From: an uncultured Erysipelotrichaceae bacterium
GTDB taxonomy: Bacteria > Bacillota_I > Bacilli_A > RF39 > UBA660
Direction of reading: 5' to 3'
Assembly: GCA_902775285.1 (NCBI GenBank)
Contig: CACYLI010000012.1
Location: forward strand, 1-32,185
Length of the DNA: 32,185 nt
Positions 1 to 32,042 of the stretch are shown here, piece by piece. Each line of letters opens with the position of its first letter. The first letter of the stretch is position 1. The position numbers were made by a program, and so were the translations under genes. The notes below the pieces were generated by a model that made no database searches, was not told where the DNA came from, and worked only from the letters and a program-made list of their open reading frames with translations.

Positions 1-258
1 ATAACTGTTGCTTCTTCACTTCTACTATTTCCTGAACTTGAATTACTTTCAAAATTTGGTCCACTAAATGCATGACTTCCTCTATCACCTATATCTACTC
101 GTGGCTTTTCTCCTGTTTCTACATTATTTTGAGTTGATTGACTTTCATTTATTCCTTCTCCAGGTTTATATCCTGCTAGGAAACCATTATCAAATCCACT
201 CGAATTATTTGTACTATTACTTTCTTCATTTACTATTGTTGCTTCTTCACCACTATAG
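1..258 (-). repeat. Repeat module copy C (left-edge gene)
   Basis: This DNA matches 29669-29926 without gaps (constant offset 29668), with about a dozen mismatches over 250 bases. It encodes the YSGEEAT and FLAGYKPGEG / RGSHAFSGPNF module of the left-edge protein. The start of the repeat coincides with the window edge, so it may extend further left. Confidence 0.9.
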
Positions 259-2378
259 TTTTCTACATCTTCTCTATTAAAAGATGCACTTGTTATTCCA
301 TCTAATAATCCATTAAATTCTTTACTTTCATTTTGAGATTCTGTTGAACCCACATTGTTTAAAGCCTCAATTAATTTTGGATTTACTGTAGTTGTAGGAG
401 AAGTCTTTCCTAGATAAATAAGTCCATCAGAAACTATCTTCGCACATTCTCCACTATATCCATCATAACTATCACCATCATAACTTCCTGCATCTAATTG
501 TGATAATGATTTAAATCCTTTCTCATCATAATAGTAATCTTTTATTCTACTAGCACCCTCAATAATACCATCTTCTGGTGTATTGAAAGACCCTGAAATA
601 TTATCTGAACTTTTTAATCCTAAAAAGTTATTGTTATCTAGCAAGGTTGATATATCTCCATCTTTTCCAAGTCCTGTTTCAAGACCACAAATACCAACAA
701 GAGTTAATGAATCTAATCCTGTTTTCTTAGCTGCTTCAATAAATGTTTGACCCATACCTTCAAGTTTACTATTATCATATCCCTTTTCATCTGACCAATG
801 TTTAAATAATTTATCAAGTTCTTCTGCACTAATATCATAAATTTTAGTACACATATCTTTGTCTCTTATAAGTGTTGCTATTTCAGCAGGATGACTACAT
901 ATATAATCATATGTATAATCTCTATCATTTATTGTTAATACCATTTCATTTGGTACTTTTAAATTGCTTATATCTATATTTTCTTCATCAAGATACTCTT
1001 TTATTTTAATTAATAAATCTTCTGGTAAATCACCATCTAAAGATAATAAACTACTTAAAGCATCTTCATTTAATACAGTTAATGAATCTAATAAGTTCGA
1101 TAAATCATCTTCATTACTATATTCTATCAATGGAACAAAATCTGTTTCTTTACTTGTTATATCTAAATTAAGTTTTAATGCTTCTGTTTCTAATTCTTTT
1201 TCCATTAAAGCAATTTTATCACCAGCTTCTCTAATAGAAGAAACTTCACTACTTATTTTACCCATTAAAGTAGTAATACTTGCTAAAAAAGAAGTTACAA
1301 TTGATGGTTCTTCAACAGGTACCGCTGTATCACTACTAATACCACAGCTAACACTTCCACTCTCTTTGAATGATGAAGCATTTACATAATTAGTAAATGT
1401 ATTTAAGCTTGATTCTAATGTTGTAAAATCAGTACGTAATGGATCTGAACCTTCAGGAAAAAGTAATGAACTAATCTCTGATTTATCTGTTATTTTTCTA
1501 CTTGTATAGTTACCTTCTTCATCAATATAGTATTCTGTAGCATTATAACCAAATCTATATACTTTACCATCATATGGATCTGTCCAAATTTCCGGTAAAT
1601 TTTCCCAATCAAAACTATTATTTACATCTGATAATCCATTACCAACAAGATATCTATATATTACACCATGTGTATCTCCAACATAGCCACCATTTTCTGA
1701 AGTAATATTAAATGAAACATCAATAGTATGTACACCACTATAATCTTTTACATAATTACCTTGATTAAAAAATGATCTTGTAGTTGAGTGTATATTTAAA
1801 ATTGTACAATTATTATCAATCATTGCTTGTTTTTGTTCTTTAGAAAGTGATGGATAACCAAAAGGAGGTTCTATACAATTTACAACTACATTCTGATGAC
1901 CATTCATTGCTCTTATAGCACCCATTTCAACTGAATTATCTGCGGTACTACTAAAACCCATAACAGATGAATTTTCATCCTTTAATCCATATACTTTAGC
2001 AATGTCAGTCATTAAACTATCCACTGCTTCTCCTAAATATGGATATTTATAAGGATCATTTCCATATGCTGGTCTTATAGTAATATGATCATTTAAATTT
2101 GTAAAATTATAAGCATCTAAAAATTTTCCATCAGAATAAACTCCACTTCCATAAGAATTAAAATCTATAGTTGAATCTGGTGTAATATTTTCTCCAACAG
2201 TAATAGTAAAATTGAAAGTATGTTCTACACCTTTACTATCTACATAAATATATTTAATTCCTTTTCCTTGTTCACCAAAAGAGCCACGGTATTTTTCTTT
2301 ATCTCTACTATTATATATTCCGCTTCCAGATTCTTTAAGTGCTTCAAGTACTTGTAAGTTTTGTTCTTCTGCGCTCAT
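1..2378 (-). CDS. Modular GH73-type peptidoglycan hydrolase, T7SS-linked family (3' end off window)
   Basis: An open frame runs from ATG 2378 (preceded by AGAGAGG) to base 1 with no stop, giving 792 codons; the C-terminus lies outside the window. Residues 1-250 form an alpha/beta domain with MGFSST (140-145) and GDTHG (235-239), which aligns with the N-terminus of the protein at 28783-31635. Residues 270-400 are largely helical. Residues about 512-655 look like a GH73 glucosaminidase: ICGLETGLG with candidate catalytic Glu567, followed by NNNFLGLK and an EDGIIEGASRI segment, the usual GH73 order. From residue 700 come YSGEEAT and FLAGYKPGEG repeat modules. No signal peptide or N-terminal membrane segment is seen, although a wall hydrolase must act outside the cell. 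With the paralogue sitting in a type VII secretion locus, export by that system is the best inference. The GH73 call is good; the role of the N-terminal domain is unknown. Confidence 0.85.
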   Translation of the reverse strand, partial: MSAEEQNLQVLEALKESGSGIYNSRDKEKYRGSFGEQGKGIKYIYVDSKGVEHTFNFTITVGENITPDSTIDFNSYGSGVYSDGKFLDAYNFTNLNDHITIRPAYGNDPYKYPYLGEAVDSLMTDIAKVYGLKDENSSVMGFSSTADNSVEMGAIRAMNGHQNVVVNCIEPPFGYPSLSKEQKQAMIDNNCTILNIHSTTRSFFNQGNYVKDYSGVHTIDVSFNITSENGGYVGDTHGVIYRYLVGNGLSDVNNSFDWENLPEIWTDPYDGKVYRFGYNATEYYIDEEGNYTSRKITDKSEISSLLFPEGSDPLRTDFTTLESSLNTFTNYVNASSFKESGSVSCGISSDTAVPVEEPSIVTSFLASITTLMGKISSEVSSIREAGDKIALMEKELETEALKLNLDITSKETDFVPLIEYSNEDDLSNLLDSLTVLNEDALSSLLSLDGDLPEDLLIKIKEYLDEENIDISNLKVPNEMVLTINDRDYTYDYICSHPAEIATLIRDKDMCTKIYDISAEELDKLFKHWSDEKGYDNSKLEGMGQTFIEAAKKTGLDSLTLVGICGLETGLGKDGDISTLLDNNNFLGLKSSDNISGSFNTPEDGIIEGASRIKDYYYDEKGFKSLSQLDAGSYDGDSYDGYSGECAKIVSDGLIYLGKTSPTTTVNPKLIEALNNVGSTESQNESKEFNGLLDGITSASFNREDVENYSGEEATIVNEESNSTNNSSGFDNGFLAGYKPGEGINESQSTQNNVETGEKPRVDIGDRGSHAFSGPNFESNSSSGNSRSEEATV

Positions 2379-2392
2379 AGTCAACCTCTCTT

Positions 2393-13407: not shown

Positions 13408-13433
13408 AAACAATCCCTTCTATTCTAAATCTA

Positions 13434-14012: not shown

Positions 14013-14030
14013 ATTTTTCCTCCTATAATA

Positions 14031-14486: not shown

Positions 14487-14505
14487 ATATTCTCCTTATA
14501 GTAAA

Positions 14506-14514
14506 ATTATAACA
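14506..14514 (-). promoter_or_regulatory. Extended -10 promoter of the pdp operon
   Basis: TGTTATAAT on the minus strand lies directly after the ssb terminator and 20 bases before ATG 14486. It probably starts the four-gene unit that ends at 11393. Confidence 0.6.
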
Positions 14515-14515
14515 T

Positions 14516-14539
14516 AAAAAACAGATTATTCATCTGTTT
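14516..14539 (-). terminator. Terminator of ssb
   Basis: AAACAGAT-N5-ATCTGTTT (14519-14539) ends in a T run on the minus strand. The hairpin overlaps the last codons and stop of the ssb gene. Confidence 0.8.
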
Positions 14540-14855
14540 TTTTACTACTTAAAAATGATACTTTTTCAGCAATTACATCCATTTTATATACTTTCTTACC
14601 ATCTTTTTCATAGTTTGATGTTTGTATTCTCCCCTTAACTCCGACAACATCTCCTTTCTTACAATACTCACAAACATTTTCCGCTATTCCATTCCATAAA
14701 GTACATTCAATAAAATCAGTATCATATGTCCCATCAACATTTTTATAACTTCTTGGTACTGCGACTGTAATATAAGTTCGTTTTTTATTATTATCTGTCG
14801 TTACTATTTCTGGATTAGTAGTTAGTCTACCAGCAATTATAATTTGGTTAAGCAT
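14526..14855 (-). CDS. ssb: Single-stranded DNA-binding protein, short form
   Basis: The 109-residue protein is a single OB-fold of the bacterial SSB type: MLNQIIIAGRLTTNPEI, the FIECTLWNGIAENVCEYCKKGD core, and GVKGRIQTSNYEKDGKK. It ends soon after the fold with SSKKTDE and lacks both the flexible Gly/Gln/Pro-rich tail and the acidic DDDIPF-like tip through which replicative SSB recruits partner proteins. It is therefore probably a second, accessory SSB, perhaps for competence or repair, and the full-length copy should lie elsewhere (often between rpsF and rpsR). AGGAGG precedes the start. It is a single-gene unit with its own terminator. Confidence 0.92.
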   Translation of the reverse strand: MLNQIIIAGRLTTNPEIVTTDNNKKRTYITVAVPRSYKNVDGTYDTDFIECTLWNGIAENVCEYCKKGDVVGVKGRIQTSNYEKDGKKVYKMDVIAEKVSFLSSKKTDE

Positions 14856-14874
14856 ATTTCCTCCTTTCGAATGA

Positions 14875-14904
14875 AATATATCAAAATAAAAATATGTATT
14901 TCAA
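14875..14904 (-). promoter_or_regulatory. Possible ssb promoter
   Basis: TTGAAA (14899-14904) and TATATT (14875-14880) are separated by 18 bases and lie just upstream of the ssb SD. The rest of the 192-base gap up to sufS is AT-rich with no coding signal. Confidence 0.4.
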
Positions 14905-15012
14905 ACTACTAAAAACACGTTTTAAAAGCTTTGTTTTTTATATATTTAAAATATCCTTACAATAAAAATTAATTATTATTACTATTATTAATCTAAAATT
15001 TTAAAAATATAT

Positions 15013-15049
15013 AAAAAAATAAAACTACATTTTATTTACATGTAGTTTT
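15013..15049 (-). terminator. Terminator of sufS
   Basis: AAAACTACAT-N9-ATGTAGTTTT (15021-15030 and 15040-15049) is a perfect 10-bp stem, then ATTTTTTT on the minus strand. It begins at the sufS stop codon. Confidence 0.88.
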
Positions 15050-16223
15050 ATTTTGCAAACTTTAATATAGAATCAATATCTTTTAAACATTCAATCAAAT
15101 AATCAATTTCTTCATATGTATTATAAAAATATAAACTAATTCTTACAGTATCGTCTTTATTGTCGCCCATTTTTGCACAATGTTTTCCACTCCTAACACA
15201 TATACCTTTTGTATTTAAATAAAGGCCTAAATCACCTGATAAAACTCCATCTATATTTATTATTACTGTACTACCTTCACATTCTTTATTATATATCTTT
15301 ATATAATCAATTTTTTCTAATTTATTTACTAAATAATTTCTTAAATCTTTTACTTCTTTTTCTATTCTTTCAATTTTATATTCATTAATGAATTTTATTG
15401 CTTCACTAAATCCAATAATTCCTGCTATATTTGGAGTACCAGACTCTAATTTATATGGAAGTTCTGCTAATTTCAAAGACTTTTCATTATAATTTAAATT
15501 CATTCCTCCTCCATAAGTAAAAGGAAGCATTTTATTAAGTAACTTATATTTTCCATAAAGTATTCCAACACCTGTAGGGCCTAACATTTTATGAGCTGAA
15601 AATGCTAAAAAGTCAGCATCCATATCTTGAACATCTATTTTCATATGTGGAGCACTTTGAGCAGCATCTACTACTACTAAAATATTTTTTTTATGAGCTA
15701 TATTGCATATAGTTTTAACATCTCTTTTATCTCCACTAACATTTGTTACTTGAGCAAGAGATATTACTTTGGTGTTATCTGTTATTTTATTTGTTAAATC
15801 TTTTATATTTAATTTTTCATTTACTGAATCTACAAATACTATTTTTATTTTCTTTTTAACTGATAACATCATCCAAGGTAAAATATTAGATGCATGTTCA
15901 CTACTTGATAAAATCACTTCATCTCCTTCTTTTAGATAATAAAGAAAGTAACCAAAAACAATTGTATTTATTGAATCAGTTGTGTTTTTTGTAAAAATTA
16001 TTTCTTCTTTTCTTTTGGCATTTATAAATTTTTTAACCAAAGTTCTTGTATAATCTATCTCATCATCAACCTTAAAACTTATATCATAGTCTCCTCTATG
16101 ACTATTAGCAGTATAGTTTTTATAATAATCTACTATTTTGTCAATTACTCTTTTTGGTTTAAAAGTAGTCGCAGCATTGTCAAAATATATTATTTCTTTT
16201 TCTTTCATTGGAAATTCATTCAT
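15048..16223 (-). CDS. sufS: Cysteine desulfurase, SufS/CsdA class
   Basis: This PLP enzyme takes sulfur from cysteine as a persulfide for Fe-S cluster assembly or other thiolation. The 391-residue protein has the group II layout: FDNAATTFKP near the start, VVDAAQSAPH with Asp186, the PLP lysine in AFSAHKMLGPTG (Lys212), and the persulfide Cys349 in VRSGKHCAKMG. The usual motif is RSGHHCAQP, so the Lys before the His and the residues after the Cys are unusual. AGGTGA precedes the ATG; Met6 is another possible start. No sufC, sufD, sufU or sufB is adjacent: the gene stands alone, with the HIT gene divergent. The desulfurase call is firm; the exact partner pathway is not. Confidence 0.92.
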   Translation of the reverse strand: MNEFPMKEKEIIYFDNAATTFKPKRVIDKIVDYYKNYTANSHRGDYDISFKVDDEIDYTRTLVKKFINAKRKEEIIFTKNTTDSINTIVFGYFLYYLKEGDEVILSSSEHASNILPWMMLSVKKKIKIVFVDSVNEKLNIKDLTNKITDNTKVISLAQVTNVSGDKRDVKTICNIAHKKNILVVVDAAQSAPHMKIDVQDMDADFLAFSAHKMLGPTGVGILYGKYKLLNKMLPFTYGGGMNLNYNEKSLKLAELPYKLESGTPNIAGIIGFSEAIKFINEYKIERIEKEVKDLRNYLVNKLEKIDYIKIYNKECEGSTVIINIDGVLSGDLGLYLNTKGICVRSGKHCAKMGDNKDDTVRISLYFYNTYEEIDYLIECLKDIDSILKFAK

Positions 16224-16738: not shown

Positions 16739-17875
16739 ATGAATAAAAAAACAATAATAATTATGTGTGGTTCAGTAATTGGATTACTTATTTTATTACT
16801 AATAGTTATTTGGCTAATGAGTATTTTATCAAATAGATATTATAGTTATGAAGCAGTTGAAGAAAAAATAATTGAAGCAACTGATAAATATTACAAAAAT
16901 AATCCTAGTATGTTGCCAGTTGGTAATGCTAAATATAACTTACAATACTCAACTTTAGTTGAAAATGATTATATCAAACCTTTAAATGAACTTATAAAAG
17001 ATGGTGATAATTGTACTGCTGATATAATTGTTATTAATAATGATGGTGTTTACACTTATATTCCAAAATTATCTTGTGGAGAATCATATGAAAGTAAAGA
17101 ACTTTATAAACAAGTATTATTAAATAACGAAATTAAAACTACTGGTAGTGGCCTTTATCAAGGCAGTGATGGTTCTTATTACTTTAGAGGAAAAGTAAAT
17201 AATAATTATGTTGCTTTTGGTGAATATGAAGGTTCAAGAAATACTGAAGAAATATTATGGCAAATAATTAGTATAGAACCAGATAACACTATTAGAATGA
17301 AATCTTTAGTACATGCTGAAGAAAGAACTCCTTTTGATGATAGATTTAATGAAGCAACTCAAGATAGAGATGGATATAATGATTTTAAAAATAGTTTATT
17401 AAAAGATTATTTGATAGATTTAGATAAAAAGAATTTATTCTTAAGTGAAACTCAAAAAAGTAAATTAGTTAGTAAAAATATTTGTTCTGCTAAAAGAAGT
17501 GAAACAGATGATACTAAAGATGGTAGTACTGAATGTTCAGAAAAAACAGAAGAATCACTATTATTTAGTACAATGTATCCATATGAATTTATGAGAGCTA
17601 GTTTAGATGAAAATTGTAAAAATATTCTTGATAGATCTTGTTCAAACTTTAATTATTTATCTTCTACTAGTGGAAATAGTGAGTGGTCTGTAACAGCTGA
17701 TCCAGTAAATAATAAATATGTTTATGAATTTATTGGAGATACATATGATTTAGGAACTGCTAAATCAGAAAAATATGTATATCCTGTTGTTACACTAAAT
17801 GAATATGCATTTTATAAATCTGGAAGTGGAACTGAAAGTGATCCTTATAGATTATTTAAAAAGAGTACTAATTAG
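16739..17875 (+). CDS. Membrane-anchored extracellular protein, unknown (DUF6273-like C-terminus)
   Basis: The 378-residue product has one N-terminal membrane helix (about 5-29) and a helical segment SYEAVEEKIIEATDKYY that recalls the start of pilin-like exported proteins. A beta-rich outer part of about 300 residues follows. The middle carries NNYVAFGEYEG, then ILWQIISIEPDNTIRMKS, and the end carries YPVVTLN and SGTESDPYRLF. The latter features resemble the DUF6273-type and related surface domains found in many gut Bacillota. Six or more Cys in the outer part could form disulfides. It is a single-gene unit with a good promoter and a shared bidirectional terminator. Function unknown. Confidence 0.65.
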   Translation: MNKKTIIIMCGSVIGLLILLLIVIWLMSILSNRYYSYEAVEEKIIEATDKYYKNNPSMLPVGNAKYNLQYSTLVENDYIKPLNELIKDGDNCTADIIVINNDGVYTYIPKLSCGESYESKELYKQVLLNNEIKTTGSGLYQGSDGSYYFRGKVNNNYVAFGEYEGSRNTEEILWQIISIEPDNTIRMKSLVHAEERTPFDDRFNEATQDRDGYNDFKNSLLKDYLIDLDKKNLFLSETQKSKLVSKNICSAKRSETDDTKDGSTECSEKTEESLLFSTMYPYEFMRASLDENCKNILDRSCSNFNYLSSTSGNSEWSVTADPVNNKYVYEFIGDTYDLGTAKSEKYVYPVVTLNEYAFYKSGSGTESDPYRLFKKSTN

Positions 17876-17884
17876 TACTCTTTT
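17859..17884. terminator. Bidirectional terminator between convergent genes
   Basis: AAAAGAGTACT-N4-AGTACTCTTTT is a perfect 11-bp stem at the end of the 378-aa gene. T-rich sequence on both sides lets it serve the plus-strand gene and the convergent HerA gene. Confidence 0.8.
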
Positions 17885-17900
17885 AATTTGCATTATTTTT

Positions 17901-19655
17901 TTATTTAAACCATGAAGCTCCAATTTGTGCATTAGATGAATTTGGATAAGGATTAGGTGGATCAATTTTAGCAAAACATGGAATATTAAATGCTGTTCCA
18001 AAACATAGTGAATTTCCTGGCCCTAAAGATTTTAATTTTTCTATATCATTTTCAGATATACTATGAGTAATACTCTTAATTATAGTTAAATCATCTGGAT
18101 GGAACATTCTAAGAACTATATAATTTGAACATTGACTTAATGCAGTAGTAGAAAGTTCACTTGGTCTTTGTGTAATCATTCCTAAAATTACACCATATTT
18201 TCTTCCTTCTTTTGTAATTCTATCAAATATATTATATCCTAAAACATCAGTATCTCTATCATTTTGTACATATCTATGTGCTTCTTCTAAAAGAATTTGA
18301 ACATTAAAGTTTTCTTTCTTATCTAAAGTAAGTGCATAATCAAATAACATCTTAGAGAATAATTTTGTTAATAGTTTAGCAAATCTTTCATCAACATAAT
18401 TTAAATTAAAGTTTAAAAGTTGAACTTGTTTACCATCTTCACTAGTAAACAATCTTTTAATGTAATCTTCTTTACTTATATAATCTGGTACATCAAAATA
18501 TCTCATATTTTCACTATTTAATACAGATTCAAGTCTAACTTTTAATATATTATTTATATCATACACTTTATCACTTTTTAAAATACCTTCACTAATTAAA
18601 GCAAATTCAAATGCATTATATAAATCTTTTAAAGTATATTTTTTAGGTTTCATACTAGAATTTAATTCTAATTCTTCATCTATAAAATATTCAATAAATT
18701 CAGTTACTAATTGAATAGCATTCATTTTACCTGTTTGATCTAGATTAATACATTGTCTTAATGTTCTAGTATAACCTGGTTGAATTATTTCACTTTCTAA
18801 ATTTATATCTTTAGTATGGAAAGTAGAAAGAACTGCCATAATTTGATCTCTTAATCTTGCTGGTTCTTTACCACTTGTTAATATATCCATTACAGCTCTT
18901 GCTATTATATTATTTTTATAAGCAATAACTTTTTCCTCTTCTTCAGTGAATAAATATACATATCTTAAAGCTTTTTCAATAATTGGAATTTGAGCTGGAC
19001 TATCTACATTTAATAATAATGCTATATCATCAACATCTAAAAAGTATGGAGGAACCTTAATTATTTCACTTCTTGTAGAAGTAATATCTGTTGTTAAAGT
19101 TTTATATCTACATTGTGCAGATCTATTAATTGTTTCAAACGCATTATGATATTCACCATATACATCAAATAAAACAATTTTAGCATTTACTGGTATAAAA
19201 TTTCTTCTGTAAAAGAGATTTTGAAATAATCTAGATACAGTACAACTTTTACCACTACCACTATTACCAATAATAGCAAAGTGATTTGAGAAAAAGTTAT
19301 TAATATTAGCTGATACATTAAATCCATCGTATATTAAACTTTTACCAACATATAAGTCTTCTTTAGAATCTATTGACTGATTACCTAGTAAAAGTACAAC
19401 TTCATCTTTATTTACTACTCTTATTTTAGCTTGACTAGATGGTTTATGTGTTATTCCATTAACAAATTGTCCATTTTCAAATTCACCAACTAATACACAT
19501 TCTATTTCTTCTTTAGTAATTTTTGTTATTTCTCCTACTATTTTATGCTTATCTTCAAATATAACATGAACACCTAAAAAAGAAGATTCTACTCTTTTTA
19601 ATAGATTTTCTACAATTACTGTATATTCAAAGACTGATATAACATTTCCAAACAT
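17901..19655 (-). CDS. HerA-like ATPase (DUF87 family)
   Basis: HerA ATPases are hexameric DNA translocases of the FtsK-HerA superfamily. The protein has an N-terminal beta-barrel (HAS-like, about residues 1-95), then the Walker A GNSGSGKSC near residue 130-138, Walker B VQILLEEAHRY near 455, and the sensor segment MITQRPSELSTTALSQCSN with a conserved Gln-Arg. The start is moved two codons in to ATG 19655, which has AGGGTG at good spacing; the upstream ATG 19661 is almost on top of the SD. The usual partner nuclease NurA is not adjacent, nor is any Sir2 or DUF4297 defence partner, so the role (repair, conjugation-like or defence) is open. It has an extended -10 promoter and is separate from valS. 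Confidence 0.85.
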   Translation of the reverse strand: MFGNVISVFEYTVIVENLLKRVESSFLGVHVIFEDKHKIVGEITKITKEEIECVLVGEFENGQFVNGITHKPSSQAKIRVVNKDEVVLLLGNQSIDSKEDLYVGKSLIYDGFNVSANINNFFSNHFAIIGNSGSGKSCTVSRLFQNLFYRRNFIPVNAKIVLFDVYGEYHNAFETINRSAQCRYKTLTTDITSTRSEIIKVPPYFLDVDDIALLLNVDSPAQIPIIEKALRYVYLFTEEEEKVIAYKNNIIARAVMDILTSGKEPARLRDQIMAVLSTFHTKDINLESEIIQPGYTRTLRQCINLDQTGKMNAIQLVTEFIEYFIDEELELNSSMKPKKYTLKDLYNAFEFALISEGILKSDKVYDINNILKVRLESVLNSENMRYFDVPDYISKEDYIKRLFTSEDGKQVQLLNFNLNYVDERFAKLLTKLFSKMLFDYALTLDKKENFNVQILLEEAHRYVQNDRDTDVLGYNIFDRITKEGRKYGVILGMITQRPSELSTTALSQCSNYIVLRMFHPDDLTIIKSITHSISENDIEKLKSLGPGNSLCFGTAFNIPCFAKIDPPNPYPNSSNAQIGASWFK

Positions 19656-23246: not shown

Positions 23247-23267
23247 AAAAAGGACAAAAGTCCTTTT
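23247..23267 (-). terminator. Terminator after esaB
   Basis: AAAAGGAC-N4-GTCCTTTT (23248-23267) overlaps the esaB stop codon and is followed by TTTAATT. The short T tract makes it moderate. It separates the T7SS genes from the T-box operon. Confidence 0.65.
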
Positions 23268-23517
23268 ATAATAAAATTAATCTAGTTCCCATTTTAATAT
23301 CAGTATTCTTAATTATTAAATTTAAATCATATAACTTTCCAGTAGTTTTATTATAAATATTTGGCTTTTTTTCTTTATAATAGTTCTCTTTTAGTTCTGG
23401 AATAGTTTTTATTAAAATTGATATTAAATCATGAATTCTTCTATCAGATGGAACAAACAATTCATATTTTTTATCTAATATTGGTGCTTCTATTATAACA
23501 TATACTCTAAAATCCAT
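23266..23517 (-). CDS. esaB: EsaB/YukD-like ubiquitin-fold T7SS component
   Basis: EsaB/YukD is a small cytosolic protein with a ubiquitin-like fold that supports type VII secretion in Bacillota. The 83-residue product shows the expected pattern: a first strand FRVYVIIEAP, a second strand KKYELFVPSDRRI, a helix with IHDLISILIK, and the end DIKMGTRLILL, similar to the closing Gly-x-x-L-x-L strand of YukD. ATG 23517 is chosen because AGGTGAT lies 5 bases before it; the in-frame GTG three codons up sits on the SD. It starts 9 bases after the essC stop. The family call rests on size, fold pattern and position next to essC. Confidence 0.8.
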   Translation of the reverse strand: MDFRVYVIIEAPILDKKYELFVPSDRRIHDLISILIKTIPELKENYYKEKKPNIYNKTTGKLYDLNLIIKNTDIKMGTRLILL

Positions 23518-23526
23518 AATTATCAC

Positions 23527-26500
23527 CTATTCCTCTGAATAAAAATCTAGTAGTTTAACCAATGTTGCATTTCCTTTATCTACATTATATCCAAAATCAC
23601 TTGGTATTTGACTTCTTGTTTCTTTAGTATAAGTAGAACATTTAATTGTATATTGATCTGTAATACCAGAACCTAACCATATAGCATTAATTGCTTGAAC
23701 ACAATTTCTATAGAAATCTTCATATTCATATGTTTTTAATTTAGATATTGAATCAGCAATTACTACTCTTACATCTTTTTTATTCTTTAAATTACTTAAT
23801 AAAGTTTTTAATTTTCTTTGTGCTTCAGTATCAAAAGATGTTAAGAAGGATTCAAATCCAAAAATCAAGAATATATATGATTTATTATTATCAGAAGAAG
23901 AAACTTCTTCTAATTTATTAAGTACTCTATCAAAATCATTACTATAATAATTCTTAAAGTTTCCTGAATCTTTTACAGATTCATTTGCATCTACCAAATG
24001 CAATTCAACATTATATATATTTTCAAAAACTTTACCTAAAGAAGGAATGAATTTTTCTAACATTGAAGTATCTTGAGCTGATATTAATGAAATTGGAACT
24101 TTAGCAAAATCAAATGTTGATATTTCTAAAGTATCTTTTCTAATACCAATAGGTACATGTTTTAAATCAGTTAGATTATTTGATACATCTATTAATCTAA
24201 CATGATTTGGTAATACAGCTATCTTCTTAGCTTTTGTAGCAACTTTTTCATTTAATTGAGCACAAATATTTTTAATAAATGTATTAATTTCATCCCACTT
24301 ATATGGATATGCTGTTTGAAATTCATATAAATTACCATCTATTCTTACAAGCCCTCTTCCTTCAATCTCAGATGGAACCATTCCATGAGTTGAACCAAGA
24401 ATACTCATATAATCATTTGGATCATTAAATTGTAAACAGAATTGTTTATTAAAGTTTTGTGATGTTTTTCCTCTAATAGCATTTACTCCACTAGCAGTTA
24501 TAACAAATGATATACCATACTTCTCACCTTCACGAGATAAAGATGAGATAACATCAATATAATCTTCATAGTTTTCATTAAATATTTCATAATTATTTAA
24601 TACTACAATTATCATAGGTAATGTCATACCACTATTCTTTATAAATAAATTATAACTACCATTATAATCAGAAAACATTTTCTTACGTTTATCTAATTCT
24701 TTAGTAATAGTATTAAATAAATTGTTTAATTTCTCACTTTCATTTATAAAGATTACATCTCCAACTTGAGGAGCATTTTTAAATGTTCCAAACATTTCAC
24801 TACCAAAATCAATAATATAAATGTTTATTTCTTCTGAAGTATGATTAATTATTAAACTATATATAATGGTTGAAAGCATTATTTCTTTTCCACTAACTCC
24901 ATATATTAAAGTATTACCACCTTCATTAAAATCAAGTAATAAAATGTCTTGTTTTTGATTACTTGGATCATCATATTCACCAATAACAGCTTTGATATCC
25001 CAAGGTCTAGTCATAAATGCATATTTTCTAATTAAAGTAGTTGTAAATATTTCTGCTGGAATCTTATCAAGCCATAGCTTTTTTGCAAGAAGATTTTTAC
25101 TTTTTGCTGTTTCATAAATAGATTTTAATACGTTTGGTAACTCTTCTCCTTGAGAAATAGTTTCTTCTCTTTTTACAGTTTCTACATTTTTAATAGTATC
25201 ACCTATATTATTAATAAATGATACATCTCTATTTACAATTTTGCTTATTTTATCTTTTGGAATATATTTTGTTCCAGCATATGCTGCTTGTCCAATTGCA
25301 AAATAATCATTATAACCTACTTGTAAATAAAATCTTCCAGCTTTCTTTAATGTAACAGCATCAGGACGTTTAATAACATCCATACTATCTGCTCTTTCTT
25401 GTACTTTTAAACATACTTTAAATTTAGAGTTTGACCAAATCTGATCATCAACTATTCCACTTGGCTTTTGAGTTGCTAATATCAAGTGAACACCTAAAGA
25501 ACGTCCAATACGTGCTGTACTAATTAATTCTTGCATAAATTCTGATTGTTGACTTTTTAATTCAGCAAACTCGTCTGAAATAATAAATAAATGTGATATA
25601 GGTTCTTTAATTAAACCAGAACGATATAATTGTTGATATTTATAAATATCTAAAGTACTTTCATTTAGTTTTAATTTAACATTATTAAATAATTCTTGTC
25701 TTCTTTTAAGTTCACTTTGAATTGAAGACAAACTTCTTTTTATTTCAGCTGTATCTAAGTTTGTAATAGTACCTGCTAAATGAGGAAGTCTAATTCCAGT
25801 TAGTTTGTTTTCAAAAGCACCTGTAAGTCCTCCACCTTTATAGTCTATTAAAACAAATGATACTTCTTCTGGACTAAAGTTTATACACATTGAAAGAATA
25901 TAAGTAATTATAAATTCTGATTTACCTGAACCAGTCATACCTGCAATTAATCCATGTGGTCCATGAAATTTCTCATGTAAGTCTAAAGTAAACAATTCTC
26001 CATCAGGTTTTATTCCAATTGGAACATTTAAACTATTAACAGGATCATTTTTTTGCCATCTATCAAGTATATTTAATTGTTCTACTTTACCCACCTTATA
26101 CATTTCTAAAAATCCAAAAGATGATTTTAATTCATCAAACATTTGATTTGATTTAATAGGTATATTTGATAGTTTTTCACATACTACACCTAGATTTATA
26201 TCTCCTAAATCATCCATTTTAAATTTTTGTTGATTATCTTTATTTAAATCATTTTTAATAATTGCAGAATTATCTCCATCAGCAGTTAAGAAATCATTAC
26301 ATTCATTTGGTAAATTAGCAATACCATCATTTAGTATTATTAATCCAAATCCTAAATTAGTTTGTTCTTTTAAAATTTTATCAATTATTTCAATATTTTT
26401 ATTCTTTTTAATATTGTCTACTATTATTAAATAATATGGTCTTACATTTAAATAATTTATATTATTCTCTATTTGTTTACCATCTTCATCAGAATATTTT

Positions 26501-28092
26501 CTTGCAGTAAATACTTGTTCTAAATAGAAAGATATTTTAGACATTTCATCATAATTATTTGCAAAAAATCTTATATCTTTTGAATCACTCCATGTATGTG
26601 GTAATATTTTAAAATTTTCCCACATATCACTACTAGTATCATTTATCATAAATACAAGTTTTAAATCATTATATGCATGATAAGTAGATAATTGTAATAA
26701 TATGCTTTTAAGCATTGATTCTTTATAAACAGTTTCTCCAATTAATACTAGTTTATTTCTTTCAATTAGGCTTATAGTTACAGGACTTGATGGAATATCT
26801 TTAGCACTATCAGTTAATTTTGTTAATTCATCTTTTAAATTATCTTCAATCATTGAAAAATCTTCTGCACCATAAGATAACTGTAATTTTAAAGGAATTG
26901 TTCCCATACCTATTCTTACATTTAAGAAGTCTTCACTATTTATTTGTCTTTCCCAAAGATTTCTTTTTCTATTTAGTATAACACTTTGTAAATCTTTAGG
27001 ATCTGGATAATTCTCAAGTAATACTTGATGTTGATTATTTCTAATATTAATAATCTTTTGTCTTTTTTCAGATAAGTATTCAGAATATTTTTTTTGTCTT
27101 TCTGCTTCTTTTTCTTTTTGTTTCTTTTTTTGATATCTTCTCATTAAAGAAGGCCATAATATAGTAGAAACAATCATTACTACTGAAATAACAATTGCAG
27201 GAATAGCTGAAGTTTTTGATGAATTTCCATTCATTAAATTAGTAACAGAAGTTGTTACGCTTACAGCAGAAGTCATAGTCATAGTAATCATTGGTCCGAT
27301 AGTATATAAAACAGGAGTGTCATCTTGTTCTACTTTACCAGGAGGACTATCTATTCTCAATTGTTCTTCTTTTATTGAAGTTGTAAAACGAGGTTGTCTT
27401 GAAAAATAATCATTTTCATTATAAATAGTTGCATTATCATCTTCTTGTGTCTCAATAAGTTCGTCTTTTAATTCAGGTAATTCTTTCTTCAAAATGCTTC
27501 CAGAATTTATTTTAACTAGACCATTTATAATAACATAATCATCTAATACTATAATTGTATAACCTAGTATAAATATACTATCTCCACTTTCTAATTTTTT
27601 ACTAGAAATTTTATTATTATTAACATATGTTCCATATTTTGTATCAACTGTTTTAATGCTAAAACCATCTTCAGATTTTGTTAATACAGCATGTGATGGA
27701 GAAATATAACTATTTCTTAAAATAATATTTTGACTAATATCACTACCAATAGAATAATCCCCATTTTCTGTAATTACATAGCTAGTAAATGTAGGATCAT
27801 TTTCAGAATAAACATATAATAATGCAGATGAAACACTCTTATTTGAATCAGTTATTTTTAATGAATAAAACGTTTCTTTTTCTACTTTTGTATATTTAAT
27901 AGCTTTATTATTTTCTTCTATATAACAATATTCATTACTAAAAAGAGTCCAAATATTATTCTTTCTCTCAAGAACAATTAAATCTCTTTCATTTTCATTT
28001 TCATCGAAGTCTTTTATCCAAAAAGTACTTACATTTTCATTAGGAAAAGAATATTTATATAGTTTATCTGATTTAACTAAAACTATCTGCAT
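23527..28092 (-). CDS. essC: EssC-type FHA-FtsK/SpoIIIE ATPase of a type VII secretion system
   Basis: EssC is the membrane motor of T7SSb. The 1521-residue protein has the right length and order: two N-terminal FHA-like domains, the second clear (GDYSIGSD with ISPSHAVLT and NNNKI, about 105-175); two membrane segments (about 275-315); a charged coiled coil; then FtsK domain D1 with a perfect Walker A GMTGSGKSE near 720, LIDYKGGGL, and Walker B DEFAEL near 840. Domain D2 near 1067 has only GVSGKEI in place of the P-loop. D3 has no P-loop but keeps the IFGF strand, as in the degenerate D3 of known EssC. It has its own promoter after the terminator of the upstream operon. EssA, EssB and EsaA are not seen. 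Confidence 0.95.
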   Translation of the reverse strand: MQIVLVKSDKLYKYSFPNENVSTFWIKDFDENENERDLIVLERKNNIWTLFSNEYCYIEENNKAIKYTKVEKETFYSLKITDSNKSVSSALLYVYSENDPTFTSYVITENGDYSIGSDISQNIILRNSYISPSHAVLTKSEDGFSIKTVDTKYGTYVNNNKISSKKLESGDSIFILGYTIIVLDDYVIINGLVKINSGSILKKELPELKDELIETQEDDNATIYNENDYFSRQPRFTTSIKEEQLRIDSPPGKVEQDDTPVLYTIGPMITMTMTSAVSVTTSVTNLMNGNSSKTSAIPAIVISVVMIVSTILWPSLMRRYQKKKQKEKEAERQKKYSEYLSEKRQKIINIRNNQHQVLLENYPDPKDLQSVILNRKRNLWERQINSEDFLNVRIGMGTIPLKLQLSYGAEDFSMIEDNLKDELTKLTDSAKDIPSSPVTISLIERNKLVLIGETVYKESMLKSILLQLSTYHAYNDLKLVFMINDTSSDMWENFKILPHTWSDSKDIRFFANNYDEMSKISFYLEQVFTARKYSDEDGKQIENNINYLNVRPYYLIIVDNIKKNKNIEIIDKILKEQTNLGFGLIILNDGIANLPNECNDFLTADGDNSAIIKNDLNKDNQQKFKMDDLGDINLGVVCEKLSNIPIKSNQMFDELKSSFGFLEMYKVGKVEQLNILDRWQKNDPVNSLNVPIGIKPDGELFTLDLHEKFHGPHGLIAGMTGSGKSEFIITYILSMCINFSPEEVSFVLIDYKGGGLTGAFENKLTGIRLPHLAGTITNLDTAEIKRSLSSIQSELKRRQELFNNVKLKLNESTLDIYKYQQLYRSGLIKEPISHLFIISDEFAELKSQQSEFMQELISTARIGRSLGVHLILATQKPSGIVDDQIWSNSKFKVCLKVQERADSMDVIKRPDAVTLKKAGRFYLQVGYNDYFAIGQAAYAGTKYIPKDKISKIVNRDVSFINNIGDTIKNVETVKREETISQGEELPNVLKSIYETAKSKNLLAKKLWLDKIPAEIFTTTLIRKYAFMTRPWDIKAVIGEYDDPSNQKQDILLLDFNEGGNTLIYGVSGKEIMLSTIIYSLIINHTSEEINIYIIDFGSEMFGTFKNAPQVGDVIFINESEKLNNLFNTITKELDKRKKMFSDYNGSYNLFIKNSGMTLPMIIVVLNNYEIFNENYEDYIDVISSLSREGEKYGISFVITASGVNAIRGKTSQNFNKQFCLQFNDPNDYMSILGSTHGMVPSEIEGRGLVRIDGNLYEFQTAYPYKWDEINTFIKNICAQLNEKVATKAKKIAVLPNHVRLIDVSNNLTDLKHVPIGIRKDTLEISTFDFAKVPISLISAQDTSMLEKFIPSLGKVFENIYNVELHLVDANESVKDSGNFKNYYSNDFDRVLNKLEEVSSSDNNKSYIFLIFGFESFLTSFDTEAQRKLKTLLSNLKNKKDVRVVIADSISKLKTYEYEDFYRNCVQAINAIWLGSGITDQYTIKCSTYTKETRSQIPSDFGYNVDKGNATLVKLLDFYSEE

Positions 28093-28173: not shown

Positions 28174-28197
28174 AAAAAAAAAGAGATAAAAATCTCT
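28174..28197 (-). terminator. Terminator of the T7SS substrate operon
   Basis: AGAGAT-N4-ATCTCT (28182-28197) followed by eight T on the minus strand overlaps the stop of the gene at 28196. It separates the substrate genes from the motor genes. Confidence 0.85.
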
Positions 28198-28783
28198 ATT
28201 TATATGTTGATAAAGGAATACTATCCATTTGTGAAGAAAATGTTGTTGTTTCCTGAATTATTCCACTTAGCATACCACTAGCAGCAGATATTTCATCTGG
28301 AAACTTTTTTAAAACGCTTATTTCTTTGGCTAATTCTTCTACAATACCAGAATAAGATTCTGCAGCATCTGCATTTCTTACTTTTTTTTCACTTTCCCCA
28401 GGTTTTTTAATTTTTTGTGAATAATAGTCTAATAAAATTACACATCTATTATATGTAGTTTCTATTTCACCAAGTTTTGAATAATTAAGTGAACTTCTAC
28501 CATTTAAATAATTTAATAAATAATTATTCGCAGAAGTAATATTTGCAGATAAAACATTACATACATTTGCTAATTTAGTAAAAGCAGAAGAATACAAATC
28601 TATTTTTTTAAATATTACATCATATCCTTTTCCAGCAAGAGTTCCATTTAAAACTCCCATTTTAAATTCATCTATATCATTAACTAAATTATTAATTTCA
28701 GAGCTTAAATTTGATAAAGCATCTTTTGAGTAAGTATCAGTAGCATTAGTTAAATCAGAAGAAACTAAATATGTATTTCCCAT
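28196..28783 (-). CDS. LXG/WXG-like helical T7SS protein, putative
   Basis: The 195-residue product is almost wholly helical, with no signal peptide or membrane segment. Around residues 42-60 it has a helix, TLAGKGYDVI, and a helix: the L-x-G-K-x-Y-D turn is like the one in LXG-domain T7SSb substrates. A second helical hairpin follows (about 60-95 and 100-125), and then a Lys-rich linker and a C-terminal helix. It starts in a TAATG overlap with the 950-aa gene, so the two are translationally coupled. It lacks a toxin domain, so it could be a free-standing LXG-like partner, chaperone or substrate. The helical T7 assignment is supported by context; the exact family is uncertain. Confidence 0.6.
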   Translation of the reverse strand: MGNTYLVSSDLTNATDTYSKDALSNLSSEINNLVNDIDEFKMGVLNGTLAGKGYDVIFKKIDLYSSAFTKLANVCNVLSANITSANNYLLNYLNGRSSLNYSKLGEIETTYNRCVILLDYYSQKIKKPGESEKKVRNADAAESYSGIVEELAKEISVLKKFPDEISAASGMLSGIIQETTTFSSQMDSIPLSTYK

Positions 28784-31635
28784 TATTTTTCACCACCAAA
28801 CTGATTTAATTCTTCATTATATTCTTCTTCATATTTTTCATCTTCATCATTATTATCTTTTTCATATTCATAATGATCATCATTTTCTGTTTTATTATTA
28901 ATAAATTGACTAGCTACAAATGCAGAAGCACCTATACCTGCTCCAATTCCAGCAATTGTTCCTAATGTTTTTAAGGCATTTCCAGAATTTGCTTCATTTG
29001 TCTCATTTGGTACTGGCTCATCAGGTATATCAATAACAGGTACATTTGGAATAACACTAGGTATATTTTCATAATCTTCAATTATATTTTTGCCTATTTC
29101 TTCTTTTATTGTTTCTGGTATTTTTATTTCTGGTATATTTACACTTTCCACTTGTGTATTTCTTTGAATAGGCTTTGTTATAGGTTTATTAATTGGTTGG
29201 TTTATAATAACTTCTGGAGTAGGGATTTTATTTTCTGATACTACTTCCACTACTGGAGAAGCAATATTTTCAGTATTACTATTTTCTACTATAGGTTCTA
29301 TTTCAGTTGTTGGTTCTTCTATTATAGGATTATCTTCTATAGTTGGATGTGTATTTTCAACTGGAGGTACAACTGGTTCATTTTCAATTGGAGGTACAAC
29401 TGTTTCATTTTGTACTGGAGGTACTACTGGTTTTACTCTTTCTTCTGTTAGATTATATCCTATATTTTGTGTGTTTTCTCCTTCTCTAACACTATCTTGA
29501 TTTTCTCCAAATACTATCTTTATTCCTTCATCATTGTTAGTGGTATCATTGTTTACATCTCTTTCATCTGGTATTATCGTTGCTACTTCTCCACTATATT
29601 CTTCTCCAGGTGATACTATTTCATTTTCAAAAGAACCACTATGATGTGAGCTGCTTTCTTCTTCCACTATAACTGTTGCTTCTTCACTTCTACTATTTTC
29701 TGAACTTGAATTACTTTCAAAATTTGGTCCACTAAATGCATGACTTCCTCTATCACCTATATCTACTTGTGGTTTATCTTCTGTTTCTACATTATTTTGA
29801 GTTGATTGGCTTTCATTTATTCCTTCTCCAGGTTTATATCCTGCTAGGAAACGATTATCAAATCCATTTGAATTATTTGTATTATTACTTTCTTCATTTA
29901 CAACTGTTGCTTCTTCTCCACTATAATCTTCTTCTGTAAATGGTTTTATTTCATCATCCATTTGATGTGGATCAGGTCCGGGTTCAGGGCTTGGTACAGT
30001 ATCATTTTGATTTAAACTACTATCTTCTAAACTTGAATTACTTTCAAAATTTGGTCCACTAAATGCATGACTTCCTCTATCACCTATATCTACTTGTGGT
30101 TTATCTTCTGTTTCTACATCATTTTGTGTTGATTGACTTTGGTTTACTCCTTCTCCAGGCTTATATCCTGCTAGGAAACCATTATCAAATGAACTATTTT
30201 GATTATTATCATTTGTTCCTGCAAGAAATGGAAAGATAGATGAAAGTCCTCCAAGTAAACCATTTGATTTTGATTCTTCTTCATAAGATGAATAATCCTC
30301 TTCTAATTTATCATAATCAATTTCAAATTCTTTATAAGTATCCTCATATCTTTCTTGATTAAATATTTGACTATCTAAGCCTTGTCTAAATGATTCTCCT
30401 AATTGTTGTGCTTCATCTGATAATTGTAAATCTAATTTATCATAATCTTCTCCAACAGAAAGAATCATACCTAATTCTTTAGAAAATTTATCTAGAGCAT
30501 CTTTAACACTACCTAGTAATGTTGACATAATATCTTTTTCACAAAGTGGAACATCAGTGTTACCACTCATCTCTACTGAATAATCTTCATTTAGGCACTT
30601 CATTTTTGATATTTCACCTTGCAAATTAGAAATAGAGCTTTCAATAAAATGTAAATCACTTTTAATAGCAGCATCAATTATATCATTCATTTGACGCAAT
30701 GATATTTCATTAGTTGATCCATCAGCATTATATTCTGTAATTTTAAATACTGGATAAACATTACATCCATAATAATCTAAATATGCTTTAGTATTTTTTA
30801 AAGTGGTCCAGTCAAAATTGCCTGATGTAAGTTCTGTATAACCTAATTTTAACATTAAATCATATATAGGTCCGTGAACTGAACCCAATTTATGTTTATG
30901 ATCTTTATCAGAATATAGATTAACATCTATAACATATTCATGTAATCCTTTATTTTGATGTTTATATCTTAAACTTAATCCATCACAAATATGAAAATCT
31001 AATATAACAGTATTACTATCATTTAATATTTTTATTTCTTCATCAGTTAATTGTACTTTAGTTCCTCCATCATCTTTTACAGATGGTTCAAAACAAGTTA
31101 CAATCATTCCATTAACATCAACGCCATTTTTAGCTTGTCTTTTTATATATCTAGCTGCTTCCCTAGCTGCTTTATCTCCAACATAGCTTGTTCCACCAAT
31201 TAATGCATGAGATGGATCTATATCAAAAACTTCACTAGCATCACTAAGTATTCCAGAAACTACTGTTTTATGAACTCCAGCACCATAAATATCATGATAA
31301 CACCAGACTCCATTTACATATTGATCATTATGTGAATTATGATAATGTCTAGGATAAATATTTAAAGCACTCGAATCTACTTCAGCAAAATAATTATCTA
31401 ATTTTCCATAATTAAAATTAGAACTAGGGCCATCAAAGTTCATTCCAGATAGATTACTTCCATCATAATCTATAGTTAAAGTAGTACATCTAAGTTTCCC
31501 TTCACTATTTGTAAAATAGTACATAAATTTATATGTACCTGGACCATCATTTTTAATTTTTTCTAATGTCTTAATATTATAATCATGATAATTATTTGCA
31601 TTTATAGAATCATAGTTTTCACCTTTATATGCCAT
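28783..31635 (-). CDS. Modular T7SS-locus protein: hydrolase-like N-domain, repeats, C-terminal membrane helix
   Basis: Numbering is from ATG 31641, two codons above the preferred ATG 31635 (better spaced from GAGGG), giving 950 aa. Residues 1-310 form an alpha/beta domain with ALIGGTSYVGDKA (candidate Ser152), ILDFHICDG and GSVHGPIYDL (His256), shared with the left-edge GH73 protein. Residues 312-450 are helical. Two 109-residue-spaced repeats follow (FLAGYKPGEG at 489 and 598, each with RGSHAFSGPNF), then a Pro/Glu-rich stretch (735-890), a Gly/Ala-rich membrane helix (889-915) and a very acidic tail. No signal peptide is seen. It lies between the coiled-coil and LXG-like genes in one operon. 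Not a known family: a secreted substrate or wall-spanning structural part are both possible. Confidence 0.85.
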   Translation of the reverse strand: MAYKGENYDSINANNYHDYNIKTLEKIKNDGPGTYKFMYYFTNSEGKLRCTTLTIDYDGSNLSGMNFDGPSSNFNYGKLDNYFAEVDSSALNIYPRHYHNSHNDQYVNGVWCYHDIYGAGVHKTVVSGILSDASEVFDIDPSHALIGGTSYVGDKAAREAARYIKRQAKNGVDVNGMIVTCFEPSVKDDGGTKVQLTDEEIKILNDSNTVILDFHICDGLSLRYKHQNKGLHEYVIDVNLYSDKDHKHKLGSVHGPIYDLMLKLGYTELTSGNFDWTTLKNTKAYLDYYGCNVYPVFKITEYNADGSTNEISLRQMNDIIDAAIKSDLHFIESSISNLQGEISKMKCLNEDYSVEMSGNTDVPLCEKDIMSTLLGSVKDALDKFSKELGMILSVGEDYDKLDLQLSDEAQQLGESFRQGLDSQIFNQERYEDTYKEFEIDYDKLEEDYSSYEEESKSNGLLGGLSSIFPFLAGTNDNNQNSSFDNGFLAGYKPGEGVNQSQSTQNDVETEDKPQVDIGDRGSHAFSGPNFESNSSLEDSSLNQNDTVPSPEPGPDPHQMDDEIKPFTEEDYSGEEATVVNEESNNTNNSNGFDNRFLAGYKPGEGINESQSTQNNVETEDKPQVDIGDRGSHAFSGPNFESNSSSENSRSEEATVIVEEESSSHHSGSFENEIVSPGEEYSGEVATIIPDERDVNNDTTNNDEGIKIVFGENQDSVREGENTQNIGYNLTEERVKPVVPPVQNETVVPPIENEPVVPPVENTHPTIEDNPIIEEPTTEIEPIVENSNTENIASPVVEVVSENKIPTPEVIINQPINKPITKPIQRNTQVESVNIPEIKIPETIKEEIGKNIIEDYENIPSVIPNVPVIDIPDEPVPNETNEANSGNALKTLGTIAGIGAGIGASAFVASQFINNKTENDDHYEYEKDNNDEDEKYEEEYNEELNQFGGEK
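29669..29926 (-). repeat. Repeat module copy B
   Basis: This copy lies within the 950-aa gene and matches bases 1-258 of the window without gaps, with about a dozen mismatches. It encodes YSGEEAT, FLAGYKPGEG and RGSHAFSGPNF. Confidence 0.9.
30022..30190 (-). repeat. Repeat module copy A
   Basis: A second copy in the same gene, exactly 327 bases (109 codons) from copy B. The RGSHAFSGPNFESNSS part is identical in protein; the flanks differ more, so it is the older copy. Confidence 0.85.
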
Positions 31636-31637
31636 AC

Positions 31638-32042
31638 TCATCCCTCATTATTATTATCTTCTTCTTCATCTTCTTTTTTATTGATTCTATCTTGATATTC
31701 TTCTTTTTCTTTATTAAGTTTTATCAAATTATTCTTTATTTCTTCTCTTTCTGAATCAATATTATTCATACTTTTAACGAAATTTATTTTATTGTTTTCT
31801 TCAATTGCATTAAGTTTTTTAGAAACTGATTTTCCTTTAATTGATTTGTTTAGTAATTCTACACATTTAGAAATATTTTTATTTAAAGAAATAAATATTT
31901 CTTCCATATCATCAAGATTTTTCATTTTGCTTTTTTCTACATCTATTTGAGAATCTATATTATTAATATAATTCCTATTTTCATTATTATTATTTCCTAA
32001 ACCATTATTAATAACGACATTATCTGCTCTTTTCTCTTCCAT
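31638..32042 (-). CDS. Small coiled-coil T7SS-operon protein, putative chaperone/partner
   Basis: The 134-residue product has an Asn-rich first 30 residues, then a long charged helical region (about 30-125) with heptad-like spacing of Ile, Leu and Met, and an acidic end (KKEDEEEDNNN). It is the first gene of the operon; its TGA stop overlaps an upstream ATG of the 950-aa gene, so they are coupled. In T7SSb loci, small helical proteins encoded just before LXG proteins act as targeting partners, and this gene has that position. No named family is recognised. Its TGA stop shows that TGA is not read as Trp here. Confidence 0.65.
   Translation of the reverse strand: MEEKRADNVVINNGLGNNNNENRNYINNIDSQIDVEKSKMKNLDDMEEIFISLNKNISKCVELLNKSIKGKSVSKKLNAIEENNKINFVKSMNNIDSEREEIKNNLIKLNKEKEEYQDRINKKEDEEEDNNNEG

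What the first reader, a model, noticed from the sequence alone, without database searches (positions are those of the whole stretch)
28783..31635. Candidate new T7SS-linked modular family with an alpha/beta-hydrolase-like N-terminus
The 950-aa protein of the T7SS operon and the left-edge protein align across their N-terminal 250-300 residues. Shared features include GTSYVG / GFSSTA after a hydrophobic strand (G-x-S nucleophile-elbow-like), VTCFEP / VNCIEP, ILDFHI / ILNIHS, and GSVHG-IY / GDTHG-IY with an invariant His-Gly. Order and spacing fit an alpha/beta hydrolase Ser-Asp-His layout. Neither has a signal peptide. I know of no named T7SS family with this plan.
Basis: partly seen in the sequence, partly recalled or inferred. 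Interest (0 to 1): 0.82.

Follow-up and report, generated by a model that had tools for sequence, protein, structure and literature searches.

The report
T7SS-linked protein with N-terminal hydrolase
A gut bacterium carries, in the same gene cluster as a type VII secretion motor, a protein built "backwards" (an esterase-like enzyme head first, then a secretion-signal hairpin and a membrane anchor), and relatives swap the enzyme head while keeping the rest, which suggests a lineage-specific, rapidly changing family of exported enzymes.

Summary
The 952-aa product (28783-31641, minus strand) and the contig-edge protein (3-2384, minus strand) are homologous (BLASTP E=2e-13). Both N-termini model as alpha/beta-hydrolase folds: the best solved matches are feruloyl esterases, a PHB depolymerase and Ag85 (Z up to 13.3 and 15.3). 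In 29 family members, often only 13-25% identical, Ser152 and His256 are invariant. The gene sits in a tight operon P4-hydrolase-LXG-like-essC-esaB and is present at 11 of 18 essC loci of this clade. The homology runs on into a helical hairpin carrying a T7SS-type export motif ([FYIV]xxx[DEQ] 30/30; strict [FY]xxx[DE] 20/30). In two tandem paralogue pairs the hydrolase half differs completely while the rest is 98-100% identical in DNA, so the enzyme head is swapped. Long forms end in a glycine-rich membrane-type helix. "No named T7SS family with this plan" is too strong: TslA is a precedent for an N-terminal hydrolase with a C-terminal targeting domain. This is a distinct, lineage-restricted variant of that plan. 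Secretion, enzyme activity and target are inferred, not shown.

The parts
28783..31641 (-). P0001, 952 aa: hydrolase - helical targeting module - acidic/repetitive linker - glycine-rich TM - acidic tail
   Evidence: ORF; family and structure
30712..31554 (-). alpha/beta-hydrolase domain, residues 30-310
   Evidence: AlphaFold model, most blocks pLDDT 60-93, canonical strand/helix order; PDB matches Z up to 13.3 to feruloyl esterases/Ag85
31186..31188 (-). Ser152, predicted nucleophile, between strand 146-151 and helix 153-171
   Evidence: 29/29 members; position in model
31087..31089 (-). Glu185, candidate catalytic acid at end of strand 180-184 (FEP)
   Evidence: acid at this place in 25/29 members; three of the four without it have Asp after beta-7
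30874..30876 (-). His256, predicted catalytic His
   Evidence: 29/29 members
30406..30684 (-). helix-turn-helix targeting module, residues 320-412, S-T-T-x-V-P turn (G-N-T-D-V-P here, residues 360-365)
   Evidence: turn Ser 29/30, Thr 29/30; helices 330-349 and 367-424; standalone version in L008/L069
30430..30444 (-). Y400-D-K-L-D404, YxxxD export-type motif
   Evidence: [FYIV] at 400 in 30/30 and D/E/Q at 404 in 30/30; strict [FY]xxx[DE] 20/30, next best i,i+4 pair 10/30; motif described in PMC9600955
28972..30399 (-). acidic/proline-rich, internally repeated linker
   Evidence: sequence; 87-aa block 90% identical to P0002
28900..28968 (-). C-terminal glycine-rich hydrophobic helix TLGTIAGIGAGIGASAFVASQFI, residues 892-914
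   Evidence: hydropathy maximum 1.58; LKTIG..G.GA..GA motif conserved in the 12 long members aligned
28196..28783 (-). P0003, 195 aa LXG-like helical partner (L49-x-G51)
   Evidence: G51 invariant, L49 >=90% in 21 members; weak LXG Pfam hits in 4/21, best E 0.0025; start overlaps P0001 stop by 1 nt
31638..32042 (-). P0004, 134 aa helical partner candidate, overlaps P0001 start by 4 nt
   Evidence: 18 aligned homologues at the same kind of locus; gene maps
23527..28092 (-). EssC, T7SS motor ATPase with FHA domain
   Evidence: TIGR03928 E=4.1e-300; FHA E=8e-12
23266..23526 (-). EsaB-like small ubiquitin-like protein (named by position and my knowledge; no Pfam hit)
   Evidence: homologues directly beside essC in the related loci; no Pfam or NCBIfam family above cut-off
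3..2384 (-). P0002, paralogue cut by contig end: hydrolase (S145, E173, H239) - helical module - glucosaminidase - shared tail repeat
   Evidence: model, fold search, Pfam PF01832 E=3e-6, just under its cut-off

Best explanation
P0001 is a substrate of the EssC-type type VII secretion system encoded beside it, built in reverse order. The N-terminal alpha/beta-hydrolase (esterase-like, triad Ser152/Glu185/His256 proposed) is the working part. The following helix-turn-helix with its YxxxD motif, together with the LXG-like P0003 and probably P0004, forms the export signal recognised by EssC. The repeated acidic linker and C-terminal glycine-rich helix then hold the exported enzyme at the cell surface. 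The enzyme head is the polymorphic part and is exchanged between paralogues. Shown by computation: fold, Ser/His invariance, operon linkage, motif, head swapping. Inferred: export, tethering, esterase activity, target (an ester on a competitor's envelope, or on host or dietary polymers).
For: Fold: two models and PDB searches. Ser/His 29/29. Weak Pfam hits of different members to BD-FAE, Esterase, DUF915, PETase and Abhydrolase families. Operon order P4-(WXG100-like pair)-hydrolase-P3-essC-esaB in many genomes; 11 of 18 essC loci of this clade (my count). All 8 family-bearing genomes of 100 relatives have EssC, against 38 of 100 overall. F/YxxxD motif with a precedent in Lap1 (PMC9600955). L-x-G in P3. 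Three P3-type proteins carry C-terminal glucosaminidase, NlpC/P60 or C39 domains, that is, LXG-like plus enzyme. Head swap: DNA about 60% (chance level for gapped alignment) then 100% identical. EssC 66-77% identical where the hydrolases are mostly 13-25%. Conserved glycine-rich tail. Sister genera carry esterase domains behind N-terminal helical/WXG-like domains, next to WXG100-type pairs.
Against: No experiment. All records of this EssC clade found by name are metagenome-assembled or uncultured genomes. The acid residue is only inferred. No sequence or profile match links the helical module to WXG100 or LXG structures. The tail's hydropathy is borderline for a membrane helix. 7 of the 18 essC loci lack the gene, so the machine does not depend on it. 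Co-occurrence is within one genus and so phylogenetically confounded.
Confidence: 0.6

Rival explanations
1. A released antibacterial lipase/esterase toxin that works like TslA: secreted with two small helical partners and attacking membrane lipids of rival cells.
For: Same order of modules as TslA, two small helical partner genes, polymorphic enzyme head; short members (361-435 aa) end after the targeting module as TslA does.
Against: No immunity gene in the operon: in L051 and L053 the cassette lies between housekeeping genes and essC. The long members have a C-terminal anchor. Fold matches are to feruloyl-esterase/Ag85-type enzymes, whereas TslA was modelled on a Yarrowia lipase (PMC10730906).
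Confidence: 0.3
2. A surface-tethered housekeeping or foraging esterase (carbohydrate, mucin or peptidoglycan O-ester), not a weapon.
For: Best structural matches include carbohydrate esterase family 1 enzymes; membrane anchor; glucosaminidase or CHAP domains in the same chain in some members; no immunity gene.
Against: Extreme divergence and head swapping are typical of conflict systems rather than housekeeping enzymes.
Confidence: 0.35
3. A structural part of the T7SS in these bacteria (for example replacing EssB/EsaA and opening the wall), the hydrolase fold being a scaffold.
For: EssB and EsaA families were not found in 13 genomes of the genus; gene inside the essC operon; PG-hydrolase domains and TM helix.
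Against: Absent from 7 of 18 essC loci of the clade; extra copies at unlinked loci; far more divergent than EssC; Ser and His kept in all members.
Confidence: 0.1
4. A non-enzymatic binding domain with an alpha/beta-hydrolase fold.
For: No named family reaches its cut-off for P0001; the motif is G-x-S but not G-x-S-x-G in P0001/P0002; acid position varies.
Against: Ser and His invariant in 29 very divergent members; several members have textbook GFSxGG and GGH motifs.
Confidence: 0.07

Closest known systems
TslA / Tsl1 T7SS lipases (S. aureus, Listeria, Enterococcus; PMC10730906)
   Same: N-terminal alpha/beta-hydrolase, helical targeting domain behind it, two small helical partner genes next to it
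   Different: Different hydrolase relatives; F/YxxxD motif lies in P0001's own hairpin while no clear one was found at the ends of TlaA1/TlaA2; separate LXG-like partner; repeated linker and glycine-rich TM tail; PG-hydrolase domains in some members; no TilA-like immunity gene seen
LXG effectors with Lap1/Lap2 (PMC9600955)
   Same: L-x-G motif (in P0003) and FxxxD-type motif as parts of a composite export signal; polymorphic enzyme part
   Different: Cargo is fused to the FxxxD-bearing hairpin, not to the LXG domain; the order is reversed
Carbohydrate esterase family 1 / Ag85-type alpha/beta hydrolases
   Same: Fold, strand order, Ser and His positions
   Different: about 6-13% identity; proposed acid after beta-6 instead of beta-7; fused to T7SS modules
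EsxX/TelE glycine-zipper T7SS toxins (PMC12744356)
   Same: Glycine-rich hydrophobic segment near the C-terminus of a T7SS-linked protein
   Different: Here a single conserved TM-like helix with an acidic tail behind a long linker and an enzyme head; toxicity untested

Membership tests
alpha/beta-hydrolase superfamily | fold and strand/helix order | tested here: met
alpha/beta-hydrolase superfamily | Ser in nucleophile elbow and catalytic His | tested here: met
   29/29 each, in the expected places of the models
alpha/beta-hydrolase superfamily | catalytic acid | tested here: inconclusive
   Glu/Asp after beta-6 in 25/29, Asp after beta-7 in 3 of the rest; geometry not measured
alpha/beta-hydrolase superfamily | hydrolytic activity | not testable with these tools
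   needs biochemistry
TslA/Tsl1 lipases | N-terminal hydrolase followed by helical targeting domain | tested here: met
TslA/Tsl1 lipases | two adjacent small helical partners | tested here: met
   P0003 and P0004; (binding not tested)
TslA/Tsl1 lipases | sequence relation to the lipase domain of TslA | tested here: inconclusive
   no lipase family among Pfam hits of 18 members; TslA itself was not compared
TslA/Tsl1 lipases | immunity lipoprotein gene next to it | tested here: not met
   none at L051/L053 or in the window part held; upstream of 32185 the contig ends
LXG effectors (PF04740) | N-terminal LXG domain on the cargo protein | tested here: not met
   P0001 begins with the hydrolase; no LXG hit
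LXG domain (P0003 only) | L-x-G motif / Pfam LXG | tested here: inconclusive
   motif kept in the 21 members but only 4/21 weak Pfam hits, best E 0.0025
T7SS substrates | F/YxxxD/E export motif at end of a helical hairpin | tested here: met
T7SS substrates | EssC-dependent secretion | not testable with these tools
   experiment needed
canonical T7SSb | EssB and EsaA present | tested here: not met
   not found in 13 genomes of the genus

The most novel reading that the evidence does not exclude
A new class of T7SS cargo whose export signal is split between two proteins (L-x-G on P0003, F/YxxxD on the hydrolase protein itself), whose variable part is the N-terminus, and which remains membrane-tethered at the surface after export.
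Probability: 0.4. Interest if true: 0.76.

Novelty: new variant of a known kind. Interest (0 to 1): 0.62.

Why it matters
Known polymorphic T7SS toxins keep a constant N-terminal targeting domain and vary the C-terminus. TslA showed the reverse is possible for one lipase family. Here a whole family with a swapped N-terminal esterase head, an export motif inside the cargo chain and a membrane anchor occurs in uncultured gut bacteria whose T7SS seems to lack EssB and EsaA. It gives a clear, testable case for how EssC reads composite signals, and for T7SS displaying enzymes on the cell surface rather than only releasing toxins.

Tried and rejected
Pfam and NCBIfam on P0001 itself: only CBM46 at E 0.01-0.07, far below its cut-off, taken as chance. 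phmmer of the N-domain against PDB: chance hits only. Helical-module and P0003 profiles against PDB: coiled-coil chance matches. hhalign of the helical module against the P0003 family: probability 10%. Alignments A2/A3 were too divergent for the search for related loci, and a single EssC query found nothing; an EssC alignment worked. Partial matches around the nucleophile-elbow region in other families of the phylum, and in G170/G115, which lack a full EssC, were taken as general hydrolases, not family members. Papers describing this family: none found in two searches. VIA-align top rows differ by little, so no single esterase family is claimed.

Full report
Observation. The window is one whole MAG contig (32,185 b). 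The ORF 28783-31641 (minus) encodes 952 aa. Against the contig-edge protein P0002 (3-2384 minus) BLASTP gives 24% identity over residues 127-414/120-405, E=2e-13, and a separate 87-aa block of 90% identity in the tails. The alignment does not end near residue 300: it continues through a helical region to about 414.

Fold. Alignments of 18 members from the window and from related-loci loci were used for two AlphaFold models: P0001 1-425 (mean pLDDT 73) and P0002 1-415 (77). Both show the canonical alpha/beta-hydrolase order, with the Ser at the strand-helix turn (P0001 strand 146-151, Ser152, helix 153-171; P0002 strand 139-144, Ser145). Foldseek against PDB lists esterases, cutinases/PETases and acetyl xylan esterases. 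VIA-align gives Z 13.3 (205 aligned, 3.8 A, feruloyl esterase 8bbp) for P0001 and Z 15.3 (223 aligned, 3.2 A, 3d0k PHB depolymerase) for P0002, with carbohydrate-esterase-1 enzymes and mycobacterial Ag85 close behind. Identity is about 6-13%, so this shows a shared fold and no more.

Active-site residues. I collected 29 hydrolase-bearing members. Ser152 and His256 are kept in 29/29, at pairwise identities mostly 13-30%. The Asp expected after beta-7 is not conserved. Instead 25/29 have Glu or Asp directly after beta-6 (FEP, IEP, VDP...), and three of the four lacking it have an Asp after beta-7 together with textbook GFSxGG and GGH motifs. I therefore propose Ser152-Glu185-His256 (P0002: Ser145-Glu173-His239); the acid is an inference. 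A further paralogue of the same genome (L143:3515-4948, 477 aa) also has G-V-S, CEPE and NTHG and is followed by a 183-aa protein with an L-x-G motif.

Link to T7SS. EssC matches TIGR03928 at E=4e-300. The genes P0004, P0001 and P0003 overlap by 4 nt and 1 nt and lie directly upstream of essC and an EsaB-like gene. Using an alignment of 11 EssC proteins I fetched 46 loci from the genome collection. Counting the window and the 17 loci of the same EssC clade (64-77% identity), the hydrolase family is present beside essC in 11 of 18; P4 without it is present in most of the others. In 100 relatives, 8 genomes had the family and all 8 had EssC, while 38 of 100 had EssC; this is within one genus, so the physical linkage is the better evidence. 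Two-module matches were found only in the window's genus and one sister genus, in 291 genomes of the family and 392 of the phylum; the sister-genus genomes also carry EssC.

Targeting module. Residues 320-412 form a helix-turn-helix with turn S-T-T-x-V-P (Ser 29/30, second Thr 29/30) and, near the end of helix 2, [F/Y/I/V]xxx[D/E/Q] in 30/30 (strictly [F/Y]xxx[D/E] 20/30; the next best i,i+4 pair in the module reaches 10/30). The F/YxxxD/E motif is required for export in T7SSa substrates and in Lap1 proteins of LXG effectors (PMC9600955). The module also exists alone as a 144-aa protein next to an LXG-like protein (L069). P0003 belongs to a family with an invariant Gly and near-invariant Leu in L-x-G; 4 of 21 members give weak LXG hits, and three carry C-terminal glucosaminidase, NlpC/P60 or C39-like domains. 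No solved-structure or profile match proves WXG100 or LXG ancestry.

Polymorphism. Two tandem paralogue pairs (L095:11147-13132 / 13157-15271; L096:14097-15986 / 17027-18718) have unrelated-looking DNA over the hydrolase half and 98-100% identity from about nt 900 on (protein 23-25% in the hydrolase against 84-98% in the helical module). So the N-terminal enzyme is swapped onto a constant C-terminal chassis. In sister genera, proteins with an N-terminal helical/WXG-like part and a C-terminal esterase (L081, L082, L085, L078; Pfam Peptidase_S9, DLH, Esterase, BD-FAE hits) stand near WXG100-type genes, so related enzymes appear as cargo in the usual order too.

Tail. The 12 long members examined end in a conserved glycine-rich hydrophobic segment (LKTIG..G.GAG.GA.AY) and an acidic tail; short members stop after the targeting module. 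No N-terminal hydrophobic segment is present in P0001 or P0002. This suggests tethering with the enzyme outside, but hydropathy is borderline.

Comparison. TslA (PMC10730906) is the closest plan. The differences are the hydrolase relatives, the motif in the cargo chain, the separate LXG-like partner, the tail and the missing immunity gene. LXG effectors work similarly but have the opposite order. The paper on T7SS variants also mentions reverse lipases at T7SSe and T7SSg loci (PMC11217815). EssB and EsaA were not found in 13 genomes of the genus, so this is not a canonical T7SSb.

Verdict. Observation confirmed; interpretation largely right but less unprecedented than claimed: a new, lineage-restricted variant of the reverse-order T7SS hydrolase.

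Noticed in passing
window 23266-28092 and genus relatives: EssC (with FHA) and an EsaB-like protein are present, with up to 3 EssC copies per genome, but EssB (PF10140) and EsaA (TIGR03929) were not found in 13 genomes of the genus; the machine may be an undescribed T7SS subtype.
   Followed up: partly
L095:11147-15271; L096:14097-18718: Tandem paralogues with swapped N-terminal hydrolase and identical C-terminal part.
   Followed up: yes
L081, L082, L085, L078: Esterases behind an N-terminal helical/WXG-like domain near WXG100-type pairs in sister genera (usual domain order).
   Followed up: partly
window 3-263 and P0001 residues ~485-660: A ~50-90 aa block (FDNGFLAGYKPGEG...GDRGSHAFSGPNFESNSS) is repeated within P0001 and nearly identical in P0002; the contig ends inside this repeat, probably an assembly break.
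   Followed up: partly
L099:3266-5506: At one essC locus of the clade a 746-aa protein without the hydrolase carries a similar Pro-rich linker and C-terminal TM tail.
   Followed up: no
L069:795-1991, L071:5506-6702, L072:7495-8832: LXG-like P0003 homologues with C-terminal NlpC/P60, glucosaminidase and C39-like peptidase domains, candidate cell-wall-active T7SS effectors.
   Followed up: partly
L143:3515-5511 (G000 contig 7): Another hydrolase-type paralogue of the same genome (477 aa) followed by a 183-aa L-x-G protein, away from essC.
   Followed up: partly
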